A stretch of DNA of 40,290 nt from Alphaproteobacteria bacterium (lineage in GTDB: Bacteria > Pseudomonadota > Alphaproteobacteria > UBA9219), in assembly GCA_028708035.1 (NCBI GenBank), contig JAQVZU010000006.1, positions 1-40,290 of the forward strand, given 5' to 3'. Positions 43-38,276 of the stretch are shown here, one piece after another. A model generated the notes under the pieces. The model did no database searches, was not told the origin of the DNA, and worked only from the letters and a program-made list of their open reading frames with translations. The stretch's first letter is position 1; each line of letters opens with the position of its first letter. The position numbers were made by a program, and so were the translations under genes.

Positions 43-279
43 TCAACGGACTTCGCCTGTGCAGGTGGGGGATTGATTGGCGCTGATATAGCAGTAGCTT
101 ACGCCGCCGGTCGATGTGTCCAAGCGAAAAACCCCCGCGTTGGCCGAAGGATTGCTGTGGTGCATCAGCACATAAGGGCCTCCGCCGCTCATGGCCTGCG
201 CTGTGTTCTGGCGGCATACGGCTAGAACGCTTCCTGCGATCATTGCCGCGCCGATAAGGATTGCTTGCGTGTTTGTCAT
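43..279 (-). CDS. small exported protein of unknown function
   Basis: A 78-residue protein. Residues 1-29 have the form of a signal peptide: a short polar start, a hydrophobic stretch around residues 7-20, and a possible cleavage site after AQA. The remainder carries a 'VFRLDTSTGGVSYCYI' stretch and two cysteines (in SYCY and PTCTG) that could form a disulfide. I recall similar short exported proteins with an FRLDT-TG-VS-C pattern in other Proteobacteria, with no known role. Its ATG overlaps the TGA of the ThyX-like gene upstream (ATGA), and an AGGAGG sits about 7 bases before the start, so translation is probably coupled. No function can be assigned. Confidence 0.7.
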   Translation of the reverse strand: MTNTQAILIGAAMIAGSVLAVCRQNTAQAMSGGGPYVLMHHSNPSANAGVFRLDTSTGGVSYCYISANQSPTCTGEVR

Positions 280-1688
280 GCTGCGCCTCCTTTGCTGCCT
301 TCTTTTTCCTTGATCGTCTGCTCACCGCGCTTTGCGCTCCAGCTATCCTCGTCGTGGTCGCCATAGAGCGCCATGCCGGGAATGTCGCGCTCGAGAATCG
401 CCAGCATCTTCTGCGCGATCGGGCGCAAAGACGGGTGGACAGTCTTGGCTGAGCGAAGCTCACCTATATAAACGGTCTCGGAAACGGAGTACGAGGCGTG
501 AACCAGCGCTTGCGTGCCCATCGGAAAGTAATACTGGCTCAGCGCCGGTGTAGCGCCGGGAACTTCTTTTTGCAGATCGGCTATGGCTTTGAATTGGGCA
601 GCGATGTCTTCCTTCAACGCGGCAGCGGCGTCGGAGGGCATATTCTCTTCAAACTGCGAGAGGTACCAAGGATTGAAGCCGAAGCGGCCGTCGATAAGCG
701 GAATCTGGCAAACGCCGTTGCGGTGGCGCTGAAGGTCCCGGAAAGAACCGAAGTCGAGAAGAAAGACGTAGTTGTATTTTCCGTACGATTCCAAGCGCCA
801 CGGCAGCGCAGCATAGCGCGGACGGGATGACAGGACTTCCATCTCGTTTTTTCGCAATGCCGCGAGATCGATGCTTTGCGGGCGGGCGACGATAGCCCCT
901 GCCCCGAGTTTTTCCTTTTCAGCCGAAGTCAGCGCGAAGCGCGCGGCAATATCTTCGACAGACACAAATGCGTTGCGAGGGGCGATTTTCGAACAGTACG
1001 CGTCAATGGGGTTTCCAGGAAGTTCGATGTCCGCCGCCTTGAAACTATGCGGGTATTTGGCGATAAGGCCGTCGAATATCCTATGCGCGGCATCGCGTAT
1101 TTCCGGCAGGGGGTGATGCTTCAGACGGCGAACATGGTCGCGCGCGGCGCGCAGAGACGTTGTCCAGCTTAGAAGCGTTGTCGTACCGATGGGAAGAAGC
1201 GAACGAGCGACATCAAAAGCCCGGGCGTACAGAGCGTTTTGCCAGATTTTCTCGGTCTTGTATTGAGCGGAATCGAAAGGATAGCGCTTCTTGAGCCCTT
1301 CGATCAGCAAAGGAAGCGCCCTGTTATAAATCTCTATCCATTTTGACTGAATGGCCTTAGAGGCTTCCGTCGCATACGGATCGACAACAGCCTGCTTCGA
1401 GAAATCCAGATAGCGGGTCGACGCTTCCTGCCCGTTATAGAGCGGGTTGTCTTGAATCGCTTTGGCGACGAGCATTGAAACTTGCTCGACAAATATTGTC
1501 GTAGCGCCGCAGTCGCCTATCGATGCGTGGCCATAGCCCACGTAATACTGATCCATGAATTTGCCGCTTCCCGACAATTTCAACTTTTCAAGATGCGTCA
1601 ATACACTTGCGGGGCTTCGCGAATAAAGCGCCTGCAACATGGCAAGATCTTCGGGATGCTGATCGTCAACGACAAATATATCGGGCAC
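276..1688 (-). CDS. double-length ThyX-like (FAD-dependent thymidylate synthase family) protein
   Basis: A 470-residue protein, about twice the usual ThyX length, which appears to be two ThyX-like halves. The first half (about 1-240) has GHASIGD near residue 53 and EASTRY at 88-93, matching the second part of the ThyX signature, followed by a RSLLPIGTT stretch and HPLPEIRDAA. The second half has RDLQRHR (RHR at 321-323), matching the first part of the signature, and its own ELRSAKTVHPSLRPIA stretch. ThyX makes dTMP from dUMP using methylene-THF, FAD and NADPH. Whether this split version is a thymidylate synthase is unknown. I chose the GTG at 1688 because AAGGAG lies six bases before it; the ATG 57 bases further upstream has no comparable site. 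The gene overlaps the small exported protein downstream by four bases. Confidence 0.8.
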   Translation of the reverse strand: MPDIFVVDDQHPEDLAMLQALYSRSPASVLTHLEKLKLSGSGKFMDQYYVGYGHASIGDCGATTIFVEQVSMLVAKAIQDNPLYNGQEASTRYLDFSKQAVVDPYATEASKAIQSKWIEIYNRALPLLIEGLKKRYPFDSAQYKTEKIWQNALYARAFDVARSLLPIGTTTLLSWTTSLRAARDHVRRLKHHPLPEIRDAAHRIFDGLIAKYPHSFKAADIELPGNPIDAYCSKIAPRNAFVSVEDIAARFALTSAEKEKLGAGAIVARPQSIDLAALRKNEMEVLSSRPRYAALPWRLESYGKYNYVFLLDFGSFRDLQRHRNGVCQIPLIDGRFGFNPWYLSQFEENMPSDAAAALKEDIAAQFKAIADLQKEVPGATPALSQYYFPMGTQALVHASYSVSETVYIGELRSAKTVHPSLRPIAQKMLAILERDIPGMALYGDHDEDSWSAKRGEQTIKEKEGSKGGAA

Positions 1689-1801
1689 GGAGGACTCCTT
1701 GACTGACAATGCTTTGATTATCCTAGAAAGCCAGTGATTCTCCAACGGGTCTTTGCGCTTAAACCAAGAGAACCCTTTGGTTAAAAAACCGGATTATTTC
1801 G

Positions 1802-26549: not shown

Positions 26550-28805
26550 ATGACAAAACAAACACTTAAAGAACAGCCGCCCGAACCTCCTCAGGACATT
26601 ACAGAAAAGCCTCTGCGCGAGGCTTTGTCCGAAAGGTATCTCTCTTACGCTCTATCCACCATCATGGACCGCGCCCTGCCGGACGTGCGCGACGGGATGA
26701 AGCCCGTTCACCGCCGCCTGCTTTACGCCATGCGCGGCCTTAAGCTCGATCCGACATCGCCCCCCAAAAAATCCGCGCGCGTCGTCGGCGATGTTATCGG
26801 CAAATTCCATCCCCATGGCGATACGGCAGTTTATGACGCTATGGTCCGTCTGGCTCAGGATTTCAGCCAACGCTACCCGCTGGTCGAAGGCCAGGGCAAC
26901 TTTGGCAATATCGACGGCGACAGCGCCGCCGCCATGCGATACACCGAAGCGCGGTTGACGGACGTCGCGCTCCTGCTTCTCGAAGGAATCGACGAAGACG
27001 CGGTTGACCTGCGTCCGACTTATGACGGCAGCGAGACAGAGCCTGTTGTCCTTCCGGCCGCCTTCCCTAACCTTCTGGCAAACGGAACCAACGGAATCGC
27101 CGTCGGCATGGCAACCAGCATTCCGCCGCATAACGTGGCTGAAATCTGCGATGCCTTGCGCTATCTCATCGGGACTCCGAACGCAGGAATCGAAAAGCTG
27201 GTCAGTTTTATGCCCGGCCCGGACTTTCCGACCGGCGGCGAACTTGTTGAAAATCGCGAAACAATCATCGAAGCCTATCGTACCGGAAAAGGCAGCTTCC
27301 GCATCCGCGCCAAGTGGCACAAGGAAGAACTGCGCCAGGGCACGTGGCAAATTGTCGTTACAGAAATCCCCTTTCAGGTCCAGAAATCGCGCCTGATCGA
27401 AAAAATGGCCGAGCTTCTTCAGGCCCGGAAGCTTCCGCTGCTCGACGACGTTAACGACGAATCCGCCGAGGACGTTCGCATTGTCCTGACACCGAAAAGC
27501 CGCAACGTCGATCCTGCCGTTTTGATGGAGTCGCTATTCAAGCTCTGCGACCTTGAAGCCCGCATTCCTCTGAACATGAACGTTCTGGACAAGGATTGCG
27601 TCCCAAGCGTCATGGATCTGCGCGACGTTCTAAAGTCGTACCTTAACCACCGGCAGGATGTCCTGATCCGCCGATCCACCTATAAGCTTCAACAGATCGA
27701 AGCACGGCTGGAAGTTCTGGCTGGCTATTTGATAGCCTATCTGAACCTCGACAAAGTCATCAAGATCATCCGCACCGAGGACGAGCCCAAGCCCGTTTTA
27801 ATGAAAACCTTCGGACTGACCGATAATCAAGCCGAAGCGATCCTGAACATGCGGCTTCGTTCGTTGCGCAAGCTTGAAGAGATGCAGATTAAAGGCGAAC
27901 AGAAAGACCTTGCCGAAAAACAGGCGGGCCTCAAGAAGCTTCTGAAGAACGAAGACGCTCGGTGGCAGTTTATCGACAGCGAACTAGCGGAACTCAAAAA
28001 ACGCTTTGGCAAAAACACCAAGCTTGGCGCGCGCCGCACGGTCATCGGCGAGGCCCCGGTTGAACGAGACGTTCCTGTCGATGCCGTTATCGAAAGGGAA
28101 AACATCACCGTTGTCCTGTCCGCAAAGGGATGGATTCGCGCCATGCGCGGCCATATCGCCGACGATTCCGCCCAACGCGCACAGATCAAATACAAGGAGG
28201 GCGACGAAGAAGGCTTTGTCCTCAACGCCGAGACGATCGACAAGGTTCTGCTCTTCGCCACTAATGGCCGTTTCTATACGCTTTCAGGCGATAAACTGCC
28301 TCCGGGCCGGGGCTTTGGCGAGCCTCTCCGTTTGATGATCGACCTTCCTAACGAGGACGACATTATCGGCTTGACGCTCTATGCTCCCGACAAGAAATTT
28401 GTCGTGGCGTCGAAGGACGGGCACGGCTTCATCGTCAAGGCCGAGGATACGCTGGCCCAGACCAAGAACGGCAAGCAGATCCTTAACGTGGCGGATCAGG
28501 CGAAGGCCGTGGCGTTTGCGCCTGTCGCGGGCGACACAATCGCCGTGATCGGCACCAATCGAAAGCTTTTGCTGTTCCCTGCGAGCGACTTGCCTGAAAT
28601 GTCGCGAGGCCGCGGAGTGATCTTGCAAAAATACCATGGCGGAGAATTGTCCGACATCAAGACTTTCGTCCTGAAGGAAGGCCTGACGTGGCAATCCGGC
28701 GAGCGCACGCGCACAGAGACCGATCTGCGCAGCTGGCGTGGCGAACGCGCTCAGGCCGGAAAAATCGCGCCAACCGGATTCAATCGAAGCAATAGATTCA
28801 AATAA
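26550..28805 (+). CDS. parC: DNA topoisomerase IV subunit A
   Basis: A 751-residue type IIA topoisomerase subunit that, with ParE, decatenates daughter chromosomes. The N-terminal winged helix contains [15 protein letters not shown] and the catalytic tyrosine is Y131 in [10 protein letters not shown]. The quinolone-resistance region [17 protein letters not shown] is intact. A C-terminal beta-pinwheel region (about 495-750) is somewhat short, which together with the sequence style favours ParC over GyrA. No parE is present in the window. It is divergent from xseB. Confidence 0.95.
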
Positions 28806-28941
28806 TCCAAAGGAGCCGCCTTCTTATTCCCGCCGACTTTGCGCGGAAGAACGTTTGTTGCTGAAAAAAATTTGATTTATCATCGACGCCGCCTTGTTTT
28901 TGCGCGATAAGAAGAGCGCTTGCTTCTGGAGGATTCTCGAT

Positions 28942-29628
28942 ATGAAACTGCCGCTCTGCTTTCTCAAGGCTTCGAGAATGCGAATAATAGCGGCAGGGAC
29001 GCTTCGCTCCGCCAGGTTCGCCGTTTTCCGGGCAAGAGGGATCTTCAGGAGATTTCGATTCCGGCGGATGATTCACACGCTGGGAGGAACCTTCGTCGGC
29101 CTTATTTTCCTGATTTTTGTCGTTCTGCCCACTGCCCGCTACTATGGCGCATGGATGGAACGCCACGCTTCGCAGGAAAAGCTTCAAGCCCTTCAGCACC
29201 AGCAACTCGTTAAGGAACTGGTCGAACCCGCCAAGCGGGTCGATGCTTTGCCGAATGAAAGAGTTCAGACTCAAAAAGCCCTGTATGCGCCATCGCCGCG
29301 CATTCCGGCCAAGCTTGCGGGAAAAATTACAGGATATGCGCTCGAGGGATGGCCTATGGTCGGGAAAACGACGGTCGTCCTTTCGGGAATCGAAAAACTG
29401 GATCTCTCTCAGCTCGATAGCATCAAGACTTTTATCAGGGAACAGGGAAACTATCTGGTTTGCAATCATACAGCTTCAGGAACTTTCCGCTGTCTGACAA
29501 AGCAGAATATTGACCTTGTGCAAGCTATAGTCCTCAACGGCGCAGCAAGCGTGACAGCCGATGCTCTTGACCTTTACAAAGATTCCGAAGCTCAGGCCAA
29601 GGCTGCGGGCCGCGGACTTTGGAAATAA
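28942..29628 (+). CDS. membrane-anchored protein with a nuclease-like (SNase) C-terminus
   Basis: A 228-residue protein with an Arg-rich N-terminus (1-43), one hydrophobic segment (about 46-64), and a periplasmic part with a helical region at 70-95. The C-terminal end (VTADALDLYKDSEAQAKAAG then RGLWK) matches the last helix of staphylococcal-nuclease-like domains, where members end AEA-A---GKGIW. The arginine and aspartate catalytic residues usually found earlier in SNase domains are not clear here, so activity is doubtful. GGAGG lies eight bases before the ATG; an internal ATG at 29068 would remove the Arg-rich part. The lipoprotein gene follows at once. Confidence 0.65.
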   Translation: MKLPLCFLKASRMRIIAAGTLRSARFAVFRARGIFRRFRFRRMIHTLGGTFVGLIFLIFVVLPTARYYGAWMERHASQEKLQALQHQQLVKELVEPAKRVDALPNERVQTQKALYAPSPRIPAKLAGKITGYALEGWPMVGKTTVVLSGIEKLDLSQLDSIKTFIREQGNYLVCNHTASGTFRCLTKQNIDLVQAIVLNGAASVTADALDLYKDSEAQAKAAGRGLWK

Positions 29629-29645
29629 ATTTTGTTCGGAGAGCC

Positions 29646-30263
29646 ATGAAAAAATTTTTCTTTTTGATCGCCCCGATCCTTCTGCTCCAAGCCTGTGCAA
29701 ACGGCCTATCGACGCTGAGCCAGGAAGAGAAAACACGAACGCTGCATGACATCAGGCTTGGAAATATCGAGCTCAATTGCCGCCTTACATGTACAGGCAC
29801 TTGGGAACTTGGCGGCCATGACGAAGCGAAAAAACTATATGCCGCGCGCGACTGGGAGCATTTAGGCCTTCATATTGCGAAGATGGGCTATCAAAGCGAC
29901 CTGACCTACTTCTACTTGGGCCGCAGCGCCGAGGAAATGGGCGCCCACCCCGCCGCTCTCAAATACTACCAAATCGCGGGCGCCCTTTCGACGGGATCGA
30001 AAGCCACTCTGAAATGCGAGACCTATAGCGACTGCGACGGCTTCGCTTTTCCACAAGACATTGATGCCCGCGCCGAGGCTCTTTCCATCAAATCGACAAA
30101 GAAACAGCAAGCCGCTCCGATGGAAAAACCGGAATCCCGTCCTGCATCGGCCAAACAGCTACCAGCCCCAAAGGAACCTGTATCTCCGGCTCCGCCAAGC
30201 AGCAAACCCTCCGCCCCCGCTAAAGCCCCATGGATCATCCCGCCCCCCGTCAAGGGCGACTAA
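29646..30263 (+). CDS. lipoprotein with helical repeat-like middle
   Basis: A 205-residue protein. The first 17 residues are a lipoprotein signal: a short basic start, FFFLIAPILLL and the lipobox LQAC, with lipidation expected at C17. The middle (about 60-115) has helices with a TPR or Sel1-like look (YFYLGRSAEEMGAHPAALKYY). The C-terminal 65 residues are Pro/Ala/Lys-rich and probably disordered, ending IIPPPVKGD, as in proteins that cross the envelope. GGAGAG stands close to the ATG, and the gene follows the nuclease-like gene by 17 bases. Family not recognised. Confidence 0.75.
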   Translation: MKKFFFLIAPILLLQACANGLSTLSQEEKTRTLHDIRLGNIELNCRLTCTGTWELGGHDEAKKLYAARDWEHLGLHIAKMGYQSDLTYFYLGRSAEEMGAHPAALKYYQIAGALSTGSKATLKCETYSDCDGFAFPQDIDARAEALSIKSTKKQQAAPMEKPESRPASAKQLPAPKEPVSPAPPSSKPSAPAKAPWIIPPPVKGD

Positions 30264-30410
30264 GATCGGCAGTTTTCTCTTATAGCAACCCCGCCAGCGT
30301 CTAAAATGCTTGATTAACCATACTCTTTTCTTGTCCGGCAGCGCGGCCTTCTTTAAGAAAGACGATTCTAAAAAGTCCCTTTTTTCACACGCTTTAATTA
30401 CGGTGCCTCA

Positions 30411-32561
30411 ATGAATAATTCTAAAAATTTCAATCTCCACAGCATCGCTAGCCTTTCCCCCGAAGACCTTAAAAACAAAATTTTTGATAATAATGAATTA
30501 CAGCTTTTAACGGTGAGTTCGTCCGCTTTGACCTCTCTTCGAAAGAAAGGCGCATCCATTACATCCGATGAAGGCAAACTAATAACCGAAGCTTGCAACT
30601 TATTGCATATCTATGCTGCGCTATGGTGCATATTACGCTTGCCTCCACCGGAATATTCGTCCACCTATCACGTGGATATGTCATACAAAGGCGGCGATGC
30701 CTTCAACCGCGCAAAGAAGGATTTTGATAATCTTCAGACTCTTCGCAGCGAAATCTGCAGTAATGCTAAGAGTCAAGCACTCAGCGCAGCCAAACAGGAA
30801 ACGATGCAACAGGTTGGCCAATACGCGCCAAAATCGGAGGCTGTTGTTTCTGATGAATATCCTCGAACGGAAGCGCAAATCATGGCCCACCTTTCCGGCC
30901 CAGGTCGTGCGCTGTTCGATCTTGTGAAAAAAATAGAAGAAATCAGATACCCCAACGGAAATCCAAAGTTCCCGACTTTCTTGAGAAATCTCAAGGATGC
31001 CGTATTTCCCGTATGCGATTTTATCGAGTCTTGCTTCGACGTTTCTGATCTCGCGCGGACTGATAAAGAGCGCCAAGCTTACAAAGACGCCGCAGAAAAG
31101 GCTCAAAGGCTCGCCGCGGAAGCAAAAGCCCTCGCCGAACAAAAAGAGCGTGACGAAAAATTAGCCGCGCGCGAGAAGATAGACTGGCGTGAACAGGCAA
31201 AAGGCCCCGCCGCAGAATTCGCCGAGCTCCTCATACACCCAAACGACTCCACCAATCGCATCAGATCGAACCAGATGTACAAGGAAGCAGCTGTGGCCAC
31301 GCAAATGGCCCTGCTGATATTTCTTCAACTCGGCGACCCTGCCAATCTCGTCAAGACACCTTCGCTGATAATGCAATGGAAAAGTGACGAAACTCTGAAT
31401 TACCTAGACAAAACATTAAAGTGTTTGACCGCTTCGACGAAAAATCTCGCGATGGTCCTGTCAGACCCCCGCGAAACGCAAAACATTATCAGAACGACCA
31501 CTAGCATCCTCGAAATTCATCTAAACTATCTTGAAGATTACAATCTATGCCCTCAAACTGTTGCCGATATGCGGCTCATCGTTAATGATGCTTTGGGTGC
31601 CTTCAAGGTCAAGCAAGCGGAACAAGCGAAGCTTAAAGAGAGGCCGTTTGAAGACAGGGCTTTTCTTCTGACTCCCGCAAACTTTTTAGGAACTTTGATA
31701 GATCCCCAAGATCTGCCGGATGCCTATGAAGATCCGAACGTCGAGCGTCTTGGCAAAACATTTCAAACCTTTTTGATCGCCAACGCGCTCTTCAATACCG
31801 ATCCGAAAGAACATCTTTTAGATGTAGAGCCGATCTTTCGCCACGGGCGGAATCTTTATGACCAGAAGCACGAAGACGCCTATGATGGAATGGTCGCTCT
31901 TCTTGACGAGTACGATGGCCGGGAAACGGCCATGCCGACGACAGAAAGGCAAAAAGTTCTTGATGACGCCATAGACGCTGTCGTCGAATGTCTCGAGGAA
32001 ACGGAAACCGCCAGTCCAGAAACAGCGAAACAAATTCGGGCTATCCTCGCGCCCTATGCGGAAAAACGGGCAAAGGCAATAGAGGTTGAACTTGCGGAGC
32101 TTCGCGAAGCGCCGATGGAAAAGATCGCACTCCTAAAACACAAGAAATTCATGGACGTGATTTTAAGCCCTGAGGATTCAAAAACCGCGCTTAGGGACCC
32201 CTTGGTCGAAAACCTCGGTAAATCCTATCACATTTTGATGATAGCTAAATTGATAAACAAAGGCCGTTTAACGACTGATGCCCTAGTGGACTATTTTGAC
32301 GAACATCCGAACGAGCTCTATTCACCTGCTGTTGAGCGTGAATGGGAAAGTATGGTTGCTCTCCTCCATGATTATTACGGCCAAAAAATTCCGGAAAAAA
32401 CGAAACTTGAGCACCTCGATATAATCAGAACCAATACCGCTTACCGTCTGGATCTTGCCGAAAAATCATGCCCTTCAACTGCGGAAAAGATATCGGCTGA
32501 CCTTCTCCGCCGAGGAAATAAGAAGCCAGGCGTGACCTCTGGCCATACTCTAGCTGCCTAG
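30411..32561 (+). CDS. 716-residue helical protein with three internal repeats
   Basis: A large, probably cytoplasmic all-helical protein with no recognised family. Three copies of an approximately 125-residue module are visible at about 267-396, 421-548 and 577-699. Shared marks are an opening [F/L]-x-x-x-LI-x-P-x-D, a DP-x-VE-x-LGK stretch (copies 2 and 3), a MVALL-x-[DE]-Y segment and a closing helix with [S/C]P-x-TA-x-x-I. Copies 2 and 3 are the closest pair. Highly charged helical linkers (215-262, 400-416, 549-575) precede each copy. The first 200 residues may hold a further diverged copy. It has a weak ribosome-binding site, no signal peptide and no membrane segment. Function unknown. 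Confidence 0.75.
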   Translation: MNNSKNFNLHSIASLSPEDLKNKIFDNNELQLLTVSSSALTSLRKKGASITSDEGKLITEACNLLHIYAALWCILRLPPPEYSSTYHVDMSYKGGDAFNRAKKDFDNLQTLRSEICSNAKSQALSAAKQETMQQVGQYAPKSEAVVSDEYPRTEAQIMAHLSGPGRALFDLVKKIEEIRYPNGNPKFPTFLRNLKDAVFPVCDFIESCFDVSDLARTDKERQAYKDAAEKAQRLAAEAKALAEQKERDEKLAAREKIDWREQAKGPAAEFAELLIHPNDSTNRIRSNQMYKEAAVATQMALLIFLQLGDPANLVKTPSLIMQWKSDETLNYLDKTLKCLTASTKNLAMVLSDPRETQNIIRTTTSILEIHLNYLEDYNLCPQTVADMRLIVNDALGAFKVKQAEQAKLKERPFEDRAFLLTPANFLGTLIDPQDLPDAYEDPNVERLGKTFQTFLIANALFNTDPKEHLLDVEPIFRHGRNLYDQKHEDAYDGMVALLDEYDGRETAMPTTERQKVLDDAIDAVVECLEETETASPETAKQIRAILAPYAEKRAKAIEVELAELREAPMEKIALLKHKKFMDVILSPEDSKTALRDPLVENLGKSYHILMIAKLINKGRLTTDALVDYFDEHPNELYSPAVEREWESMVALLHDYYGQKIPEKTKLEHLDIIRTNTAYRLDLAEKSCPSTAEKISADLLRRGNKKPGVTSGHTLAA

Positions 32562-32586
32562 GCGGATCTAACGGGTTAAGGAGGAA

Positions 32587-32663
32587 TGGGGCGGTCGACG
32601 AGACTCGAACTCGCGACAACTCGGACCACAACCGAGGGCTCTACCAGCTGAGCTACGACCGCC
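32587..32663 (-). tRNA. tRNA-His (anticodon GTG)
   Basis: Read on the minus strand, the cloverleaf folds with acceptor stem GCGGTCG/CGACCGC, a D-arm with AGCTCAGCTGG, an anticodon stem CTCGG/CCGAG and the loop TTGTGGT (anticodon GTG), and a T-arm containing GTTCGAG. The base before the acceptor stem is G (G-1), paired with C73, the identity feature of tRNA-His. CCA is encoded. Confidence 0.95.
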
Positions 32664-32889
32664 ACAAGAAAAACCGCCCTTCCTATAAAAGATAGGCGGA
32701 TGGTTTGCAACCCGTAAGGTTCGCAGCTTTCTCAATTTACCTGAGAATAAAACGACCCAACTGCCCAATCTGGGACAGCGTCGGATTATGCTGAAAATGC
32801 AAGACGTTGGCTAAATTGTCAAGCGATATGGAAAATGCCATATTTCCAACCTGCGCTGCCCGGATCGAACTCTTAACCAAGGAACGCTT

Positions 32890-34281
32890 ATGTCCAAAAC
32901 GACCCCTCTCTTTGATCTGATTAAAAAAAGCGGCGCGCAATACGTGGATCTTCGCTTTACCGATCCCAGAGGCAAGCTTCAACACTTAACGCACCATGTC
33001 GATACCATCGACGACAATGCCGTTGAAAACGGCTTGATATTCGACGGATCGTCAATCGCTGGCTGGAAAGCTATTAACGAGTCCGACATGGTTCTCAAGC
33101 TCGACGTCGATACGGCGGCGATGGACCCCTTCTATGCCGAACCGACCGTCACGGTGTATTGCGATATCTACGATCCAATCACGAACAAGCCTTATAGCCG
33201 CTGCCCCCGCTCGGTCGCGCGCCGCGCCGAGGAATACCTTATCGAATCCGGCCTAGGCACCAAGGCCTATTTTGGGCCAGAAGCCGAATTTTTTGTGTTC
33301 GATCATGTGACGTTTGAAAACAAGCCGACGCACACGTTCTTCAAGCTCGAGTCCATGGAAAGCCCGTCCAACAGCGGTAACGACTGTCTTGAAGGCAACA
33401 CGAAGGGCGGGTACTTTTCCGTCAATCCGGAGGACAACGCGCAGGACCTTCGCACCGAGATGCTTTCCGTCATCAAGCAAATGGGCGTTCCGGTTGAAAA
33501 GCATCATCACGAAGTCGCCACCGCTCAACACAAACTGGGCATTAAGTTCGCCTCGCTGCTCAAGTGTGCCGACAACATGCAGATCTTCAAGTACGTGGTT
33601 CGCAATGTGGCGGCTATGTACGGCAAAACGGCAACCTTTATGCCGAAGCCTATTTTTGGCGACAACGGCTCGGGCATGCATGTGCACCAATCGCTTTGGA
33701 AGGACGACTCGCCGCTGTTCTCGGGCAAGGAGTACGGAGGATTGTCCAAGCTCGGCTTGTATTACGTCGGAGGCATTATCAAGCATGCGCGGGCTTTGAA
33801 TGCGCTCACTAATCCCTCGACCAACAGTTATAAACGCCTGGTTCCGGGATATGAGGCCCCTGTTCTGCTAGCGTATTCATCGCGCAACCGCTCGGCATCC
33901 TGCCGCATTCCGTTCGCGACAAACCCCAAGGCCAAGCGCATCGAAGTCCGTTTCCCAGATCCGCTTGCAAATCCGTATCTCGCATTTGCGGCGATGATGA
34001 TGGCGGGACTTGATGGCATCGAAAACAAGATTGAGCCCGGCGCGCCATCCGACAAGGATCTGTATCACCTTCCAAAAGAAGAACTCGCCAAGGTCCCGAT
34101 GGTCTGCGGCTCGCTGAAGCAGGCAATCGAAGCGCTGGAAAAGGATCATGACTTCCTTCTCAAGGGCAACGTGTTCACGATGGATATGATTAACAGCTAT
34201 CTCGACCTGAAGCGCGAGGAGTGGGACCGCTTCCGTCTCGCGCCGCATCCGGTCGAGTTCGATCTGTACTATTCGGCGTAA
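32890..34281 (+). CDS. glnA: glutamine synthetase, type I
   Basis: A 463-residue enzyme that makes glutamine from glutamate, ammonia and ATP, working as a dodecamer. Landmarks are the FDGSSIAGW loop, GPEAEFFVFD with metal ligands, HHHEVATAQ, DNGSGMHVHQSLW, NRSASCRIPF and the adenylylation site Y392 in KDLYHLPKEE. The intact tyrosine suggests regulation by GlnE. Length is near the usual 468-470. glnB, the usual neighbour in Alphaproteobacteria, is absent upstream, where the tRNA-His gene and a 700-residue unknown protein stand instead. I see no clear sigma-54 promoter. Confidence 0.97.
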   Translation: MSKTTPLFDLIKKSGAQYVDLRFTDPRGKLQHLTHHVDTIDDNAVENGLIFDGSSIAGWKAINESDMVLKLDVDTAAMDPFYAEPTVTVYCDIYDPITNKPYSRCPRSVARRAEEYLIESGLGTKAYFGPEAEFFVFDHVTFENKPTHTFFKLESMESPSNSGNDCLEGNTKGGYFSVNPEDNAQDLRTEMLSVIKQMGVPVEKHHHEVATAQHKLGIKFASLLKCADNMQIFKYVVRNVAAMYGKTATFMPKPIFGDNGSGMHVHQSLWKDDSPLFSGKEYGGLSKLGLYYVGGIIKHARALNALTNPSTNSYKRLVPGYEAPVLLAYSSRNRSASCRIPFATNPKAKRIEVRFPDPLANPYLAFAAMMMAGLDGIENKIEPGAPSDKDLYHLPKEELAKVPMVCGSLKQAIEALEKDHDFLLKGNVFTMDMINSYLDLKREEWDRFRLAPHPVEFDLYYSA

Positions 34282-36920: not shown

Positions 36921-38276
36921 ATGAGCTCGAGTCCAGCCCGCAGGAATCGCCGCACACAAGCTAAAAATTTTGAAAAAGAGTTCCGGACCGCCGCTAGGCC
37001 GCTTTGCCAAGTAATGGTCGGGATTACGCTTGCCATGCTGATCGGGCAGAACTTGGCTGCGGCAGAAGACATGAACGAAGACACATCCAATGATAGTTCG
37101 GGAGACAGTTGGGTTGCACAACCGGTCGCGCCGATGGGTGTCGATCAAGACGTGCAGATGAAAGCTCTTTGGCAGGCCATGAGCCAGAAGGATACCGAAA
37201 AAAGGGCGATCAACATCGTTTGCATGCCCGGCGGAGCAAGCGGGCTTGAAGCTATGCGCTATGTAAGTCGGCTGGAAGGTTGGGTGAAGGTCAATCGCCC
37301 TAGCCTGTTTCAGAAAGGATTGGAGTCGGAGGTTACGACGGACCAAAACAAGACTTCGAGAGCAGTATTCCCCGGCAAGAAATACTATGGTATTGGGACG
37401 GGCGCGACGGCTTTGGCGTATCTCGCTGGCTCGAAAGAAGACGTGGGCGCGAAACTGGTTAAGCAAGTGGAGGCTGGCGAGCTAGGCACCAACAGCCTGA
37501 AACAGATGATGCTGGACGACAGCGGCACTGAAGAGTCGCTGAATTCAAACAATCGGCTTAACCGCAGCTTAAACGGCAATGGAGACCCGGACTTTTTCGT
37601 CGTTATGCAATCGAACAACGAGAAGGGGTATCAAATCGTCAATACATCCTCGGAATCTCCTGAGGCAATTATTAGGCCTGCTGTCGCCGCCGCAGCCGAC
37701 ATCGATACCCCGCTTCCGGTTGAGGAGGTCAGCAAGGGCGCCGGTCTCATTGTTATATTCGGCGGTGACGAGGAACAGATTTTAAAGTCTATCCACGACG
37801 CGGGGGAAGATCCGGGGAAATTCCTTATCTTCCCGGCAGACAAGACGATGACGTCAGCCGAGCAATTTTTGGATACCGCTGGCAAGTATTTGACATTCCG
37901 CATCAACTATCAAACCCTCAACGCCAAGAATGGAAAGCCTCTCCTTGCGGATGGCAGCTATGTCATAAAACCGCCGAAGAGGCTGAGAAATGGCGAGCGC
38001 GCGAAGCTTTATATCGATGTTGAAAACGGCAACGCGACGGCACATATCGAGAAGTATGTAAAAAAAGAGCCTTCGGTTAAACCCGCTTCTCAGAACAACT
38101 TGAAGAACAACAGCAGCGAGAATCTTTCGGCATTCGGCTCCGCTGGGGTGGAACATACAGCGGGGTGGGAGAAAAATCCTTATATTAAGTGGGCGCATAG
38201 CGAGTACAGACAGTTCGTCAATACTGTTACCAAAGGGTTGCCAAAGCTCCCCAATTTGCCGTTTATTCCGCGATAG
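36921..38276 (+). CDS. exported protein of unknown function
   Basis: A 451-residue protein. A long basic N-terminus (1-28) leads to a hydrophobic stretch (about 29-46, VMVGITLAMLIGQ) and a possible cleavage site NLAAAED near 48. Residues 50-70 are Asp/Ser-rich. The mature part is mixed alpha/beta with no family I recognise; stretches like INIVCMPGGASGLEAMRYV, AGLIVIFGGDEEQIL and GKFLIFPADKTM suggest a repeated Rossmann-like order. The C-terminal 75 residues are low complexity. AAGGG lies about nine bases before the ATG. It converges on mutL ten bases later. Confidence 0.75.
   Translation: MSSSPARRNRRTQAKNFEKEFRTAARPLCQVMVGITLAMLIGQNLAAAEDMNEDTSNDSSGDSWVAQPVAPMGVDQDVQMKALWQAMSQKDTEKRAINIVCMPGGASGLEAMRYVSRLEGWVKVNRPSLFQKGLESEVTTDQNKTSRAVFPGKKYYGIGTGATALAYLAGSKEDVGAKLVKQVEAGELGTNSLKQMMLDDSGTEESLNSNNRLNRSLNGNGDPDFFVVMQSNNEKGYQIVNTSSESPEAIIRPAVAAAADIDTPLPVEEVSKGAGLIVIFGGDEEQILKSIHDAGEDPGKFLIFPADKTMTSAEQFLDTAGKYLTFRINYQTLNAKNGKPLLADGSYVIKPPKRLRNGERAKLYIDVENGNATAHIEKYVKKEPSVKPASQNNLKNNSSENLSAFGSAGVEHTAGWEKNPYIKWAHSEYRQFVNTVTKGLPKLPNLPFIPR

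What the first reader, a model, noticed from the sequence alone, without database searches (positions are those of the whole stretch)
31209..32507. Undescribed helical repeat, three copies in a 716-residue protein
Three modules of about 125 residues share marks that line up (LI-x-P-x-D opening, DP-x-VE-x-LGK, MVALL-x-[DE]-Y, P-x-TA-x-x-I closing), each preceded by a charged helix. I know no family with this pattern. No catalytic motif is seen, so it may be a scaffold. It is the strongest candidate for something new in this window.
Basis: partly seen in the sequence, partly recalled or inferred. Interest (0 to 1): 0.55.

Follow-up and report, generated by a model that had tools for sequence, protein, structure and literature searches.

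The report
Orphan helical protein with duplicated module
A bacterial gene seen so far in only one genome encodes a large helical protein whose second half is an old internal duplication; it is probably a binding scaffold, and it is a lineage-restricted oddity more than a new biological system.

Summary
The 716-residue ORF (30411-32561, +) behaves as a gene and matches no family library or collection searched. The repeat is real, but as two certain copies and one doubtful one. Modules B (residues 409-560) and C (565-705) are about 31% identical, far above shuffles (score 138, shuffle maximum 53 of 1000). The proposed first copy, A (263-408), fails local, global and profile tests; its only support is a no-gap match to B at the B-to-C period of 155 residues (3 of 5000 shuffles). 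The module is about 155 residues, not 125. Silent sites between B and C are near saturation while protein-changing sites are conserved: the duplication is old and was kept by selection. An AlphaFold model of B (pLDDT 77.5) is a helical bundle without a convincing structural match. No relative was found in the 9 other genomes of the genus, 384 others of the class or 397 others of the phylum, nor in phages, plasmids or viral contigs. Best reading: an acquired or very fast-evolving ORFan, a scaffold of tandem helical bundles; function is inferred. The host alone among 10 genus genomes has VirB4-type secretion ATPases, so a secreted-effector reading stays open.

The parts
30411..32561 (+). ORFan gene, 716 aa, predicted 80.7 kDa, pI 5.45
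   Evidence: no relative beyond a match in an unrelated ORF
30411..31196 (+). N-terminal region, residues 1-262; no clear similarity to B or C; charged helix about residues 218-250
31197..31634 (+). Region A, residues 263-408: possible degenerate third module
   Evidence: against; for:
31635..32090 (+). Module B, residues 409-560
   Evidence: model
32016..32102 (+). Long last helix of B running towards C, residues 536-564
32103..32525 (+). Module C, residues 565-705
32587..32662 (-). tRNA-His (gtg), 3' end facing the orphan gene
   Evidence: neighbour of glutamine synthetase in 4 of 6 other genus loci

Best explanation
An ORFan gene for a protein of tandem helical bundles: two certain modules with a period of 155 residues, a possible degenerate third, and an N-terminal region without recognisable relation. 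Long, partly charged helices lead from one bundle towards the next, so the protein is probably a rod or curved solenoid that works by binding partners, as a scaffold or adaptor and not as an enzyme. Shown: the ORF, the B-C duplication, conserved protein sequence at near-saturated silent sites, no relative in what was searched, and a mid-confidence helical-bundle model of B. Inferred: solubility, rod shape, scaffold function, and arrival from an unsampled lineage or very fast divergence, because the duplication is old while the other sampled members of the genus lack a recognisable copy.
For: B-C similarity. Selection: over 144 aligned codons, positions 1, 2, 3 agree at 0.549, 0.562, 0.285 against 0.275, 0.292, 0.252 for shuffled pairing; 7 of 17 fourfold sites at identical residues agree. 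Helical model of B, pLDDT 77.5, pTM 0.75. None of the generic catalytic patterns tried is shared by B and C. Low third-position GC, 0.49 against 0.54-0.68 in 13 reference genes. No match in the other genus genomes. Variable content left of tRNA-His in relatives.
Against: No direct evidence of binding or shape; the whole-protein model is unreliable (pLDDT 39.2), so the relation of the modules to each other is not modelled. Five models of B ranged from pLDDT 77.5 to 49.0. A hydrophobic stretch at residues 57-75 (Kyte-Doolittle mean 1.57) is borderline for a membrane helix. No integrase among the 33 window ORFs scanned with Pfam, no second copy of the tRNA-His 20-mer in the window, so transfer is not shown.
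Confidence: 0.5

Rival explanations
1. A secreted effector: an orphan helical protein exported through a VirB-type type IV secretion system of the host to bind targets in another cell.
For: VirB4-type ATPases on three contigs of the host and in none of the 9 other genus genomes at E<=1e-5; VirB6, VirB9, VirB10 and VirB11-like genes beside them. The last 30 residues carry net charge +3. Effectors are often lineage-restricted and helical (recalled).
Against: Both traits are confined to one genome, so the association has no statistical weight. One of the three loci has a relaxase and a coupling protein and looks like a DNA-transfer system. No defined export signal was tested, and the gene is not near the secretion loci (different contigs).
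Confidence: 0.15
2. Cargo of a mobile element or prophage remnant inserted beside tRNA-His (defence, structural or selfish function).
For: Position 26 bases from the 3' side of a tRNA gene, low GC3, variable gene content left of the tRNA in relatives, including a Bro-N gene in one.
Against: No PHROGs or PADLOC match better than E 0.061; no match in phages, plasmids or viral contigs; no integrase among 33 scanned ORFs; no second tRNA 20-mer; no long direct repeats in 28700-32900.
Confidence: 0.15
3. An all-helical enzyme or metal-binding protein with an unrecognised active site.
For: Several acidic residues are shared by B and C; ferritin-like and isoprenoid-synthase chains appear among weak structural rows, Z 4 to 6.
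Against: No ExxH; DDxxD occurs once, in B only. The tool's note says that Z under about 13 for helical bundles may mean only a common arrangement.
Confidence: 0.07
4. A spurious open frame that is not a gene.
For: No relatives; the best antisense frame scores close to the sense frame in codon usage.
Against: B and C conserve codon positions 1 and 2 but hardly position 3, the signature of selection on the protein in this frame.
Confidence: 0.02

Closest known systems
Microbial ORFans as a class (PMC1559721 and PMC6372840; only listing and start of abstract seen)
   Same: Open frame without detectable relatives in the collections searched
   Different: Long (716 aa), with an old selected internal duplication
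Spectrin-type tandem helical bundles (recalled)
   Same: Works like it, if the inference holds: helical bundles in tandem with long helices leading from one to the next
   Different: Period 155 instead of about 106 residues (recalled); no Pfam match
Dps and bacterioferritin four-helix bundles
   Same: Best structural rows for module B: Z 6.1, rmsd 3.2, 99 residues aligned with Dps 2yjj_E
   Different: 10% identity, no ExxH, and a Z within the range of chance for helical bundles by the tool's own note

Membership tests
ORFan | No detectable homologue outside the genome | tested here: met
   Only the host matches; one further match lies in an unrelated ORF. Sampled genomes only; no metagenome collection was searched.
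Spectrin repeat | Match to the curated sequence profile | tested here: not met
   Pfam scans up to E 10 list CCDC47 (2.2) and Ric8 (0.086) only
Spectrin repeat | Three-helix unit of about 106 residues (recalled) | tested here: not met
   Period 155, four long helices in the model of B
TPR and similar short-unit solenoids | Unit of about 34 residues (recalled) and profile match | tested here: not met
   Period 155; no Pfam match to P0001 or its modules
Ferritin-like (Dps, bacterioferritin) | Four-helix bundle fold | tested here: inconclusive
   Z up to 6.1, Foldseek best E 0.76 with other folds
Ferritin-like (bacterioferritin) | ExxH metal-binding motif (recalled) | tested here: not met
   No E..H anywhere in the protein
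Type IV secretion effector | Host encodes a type IV secretion system | tested here: met
   VirB4-type ATPase on three contigs, further VirB/Trb genes beside them
Type IV secretion effector | C-terminal export signal | tested here: inconclusive
   Net charge +3 in the last 30 residues; no signal model was run
Type IV secretion effector | Translocation into another cell | not testable with these tools
   Needs an experiment

The most novel reading that the evidence does not exclude
The 155-residue module is the first seen member of an undescribed helical-bundle repeat family, carried by a scaffold or secreted effector that came from an unsampled lineage.
Probability: 0.15. Interest if true: 0.45.

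Novelty: new member of a known kind. Interest (0 to 1): 0.25.

Why it matters
An old, selected internal duplication inside a long protein with no detectable relatives argues that this ORFan is neither young nor spurious, and makes it a small test case for where long ORFans come from. As it stands, one protein in one genome is of modest interest.

Tried and rejected
Third copy by local, global, profile and profile-profile alignment: not above chance; kept as possible only because. One search lists A at E 4.8e-40, but A was itself a row of that alignment, so it is no evidence.

N-terminal region as a further module: global scores against A, B and C reached by 1326, 261 and 124 of 2000 shuffles; -0.1 bits with the B/C HMM. 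A resembles the N-terminal region locally (score 44, reached by 27 of 1000 shuffles), and offset -66 is the best no-gap match of A (reached by 3 of 300 shuffles for 266-395 and 12 of 300 for 263-408). This may be shared helix composition or an older duplication; it was not followed and competes with A as a copy of B.

Whole-protein structure: pLDDT 39.2, not used for fold search. Module B: Foldseek best E 0.76 in PDB and 0.41 among viral models, VIA-align Z at most 6.1: no fold assigned, new fold not claimed. The match in G374 (54 residues, E 4.7e-4, 1 of 384 other genomes) lies in an ORF that looks by eye like an aldo/keto reductase and was rejected. tRNA-His as integration site: no second copy of a 20-base stretch of it in the window, only short two-copy repeats in 28700-32900. 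Promoter and terminator scans gave numbers near the shuffled mean. VipB of type VI secretion: 0 of 10 genus genomes. Three paper searches were seen as listings and starts of abstracts only; none was a search for this protein, so nothing is claimed about print.

Full report
Observation. The ORF at 30411-32561 (+) encodes 716 residues. Codon usage is most host-like in its own frame, but it is lower than in 13 reference genes and the best antisense frame is close (0.612 against 0.632); third-position GC is 0.49 against 0.54-0.68 in the references. The last two modules are a real duplication: B (residues 409-560) and C (565-705) score 138 in local alignment where 1000 shuffles reached at most 53, and global z is 11.1 with 0 of 2000 shuffles reaching it.

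Third copy. Region A (263-408) fails local alignment (174 and 185 of 1000 shuffles reach the A-B and A-C scores), global alignment (190 and 135 of 2000), a B/C HMM (1.7 bits, line 195 of the list from 4002 sequences), profile-profile comparison and a search of the host genome with a B/C profile, which returned B and C only. One test supports it: with the offset fixed at 154-156 by the B-C period, the no-gap A-to-B score is reached by 3 of 5000 shuffles and 3 of 120 rotations for residues 266-395 (57 of 5000 and 0 of 136 for 263-408); A-to-C is not above rotations (29 of 120, 89 of 136). In a free scan of 570 offsets the 266-395 core matches the N-terminal region first and B second. I call A possible.

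Age and selection. Over 144 aligned codons of B and C, 45 residues are identical and 15 of those use the same codon. Codon positions 1, 2 and 3 agree at 0.549, 0.562 and 0.285, against 0.275, 0.292 and 0.252 with shuffled pairing; 7 of 17 fourfold sites at identical residues agree. Silent sites are near saturation and protein-changing sites are conserved: an old duplication kept by selection, against a spurious or newborn frame.

Relatives. Pfam, NCBIfam, PHROGs, PADLOC and PDB sequence searches gave nothing better than E 0.061 for the protein or its modules. Only the host matched in sets that include it and overlap: 10 genus, 24 and 23 family, 33 order, 385 class and 398 phylum genomes. The whole protein against 385 class genomes gave one other match, 54 residues at E 4.7e-4, in an ORF that looks by eye like an aldo/keto reductase; I take it as chance. 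Phages and plasmids gave no match at E<=1, and viral contigs (two scans) and genome contigs (one scan) gave no relative; the contig scans start from short peptide patterns and mostly reach close relatives. As a yardstick, glutamine synthetase at E<=1e-80 was found in 7 of the same 10 genus genomes, so some absences could be gaps in assemblies, though hardly all.

Structure. The whole protein folded alone is unreliable (pLDDT 39.2) and helical apart from isolated residues. Module B (403-565) with C as the only other row gives pLDDT 77.5 and pTM 0.75 for the best of five models, whose means run from 77.5 down to 49.0: four long helices (442-462, 485-501, 510-531, 536-564) and several short ones. 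Foldseek finds no match with E<=0.001 in PDB (best 0.76) or among viral models (best 0.41). VIA-align's top rows are Dps, Smac and bacterioferritin at Z 5 to 6, 18 of 998 chains with Z>=5 and none with Z>=8, which its own note calls common for helical bundles. There is no ExxH. No fold is assigned and a new fold is not claimed.

Surroundings. Of 33 window ORFs scanned, those with Pfam matches are ordinary chromosomal genes (ClpX, ClpP, a gyrase/topoisomerase IV A subunit, MutL, TrcR, a tyrosyl or tryptophanyl-tRNA synthetase and others). The ten best relatives of that A subunit, at 72-85% identity, are metagenome-assembled genomes labelled Alphaproteobacteria, Rhodospirillaceae or uncultured proteobacterium (L019-L028). 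None of the 13 best of these loci carries the orphan or its two left neighbours at E<=1e-4, though some are short on that side; against all 80 kept loci (of 283 relatives found) the best match of the orphan is E 1.4. On the right, tRNA-His followed by glutamine synthetase occurs in 4 of 6 other genus loci; of the other two, L012 ends 285 bases upstream and L016 has 4.3 kb upstream without a detected tRNA. On the left of the tRNA the content varies: four shared ORFs in L013 and L015, others in L014 and L017, among them an FAD oxidoreductase and a Bro-N gene. So the orphan sits at a variable boundary beside a tRNA, without element ends or an integrase being found.

Function. The best reading is a scaffold of tandem helical bundles joined by long helices, acquired from outside or diverged very fast. 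Solubility is likely but a stretch at 57-75 is borderline hydrophobic. The host is the only one of 10 genus genomes with VirB4-type ATPases, on three contigs; one of these loci has a relaxase and a coupling protein. This leaves a secreted-effector reading open but carries no weight by itself, since both traits are confined to a single genome here.

Verdict. The protein is a long ORFan with an old internal duplication. Interest is modest until homologues or a structure are found.

Noticed in passing
L105, L106, L107 (host contigs C65, C57, C85): Three VirB4-bearing type IV secretion loci in the host, none in the 9 other genus genomes searched; L107 has a relaxase (MobA/VirD2-like plus DUF3363) and a coupling protein.
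   Followed up: partly
29619-30263 (+): The gene to the left of the orphan, 214 aa, also had no match in the 22 other family genomes searched and only a weak TPR_2 hit, E 0.15.
   Followed up: partly
window residues 182-232 and 266-298 of the orphan (30954-31106, 31206-31304): Local resemblance between the N-terminal region and region A at an offset of 66 residues, stronger than that of A to B in a free no-gap scan.
   Followed up: no
36921-38276 (+): 451-aa ORF without a Pfam or NCBIfam match; not searched in relatives.
   Followed up: no
276-1745 (-): 489-aa ORF in which the Thy1 family covers only residues 49-232; the rest is unexplained.
   Followed up: no
L105:15-5676 (-): A 1374-aa ORF without a Pfam match at E<=1e-4 and short ORFs beside it, two of which share a stretch near their start, close to a type IV secretion cluster.
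   Followed up: no
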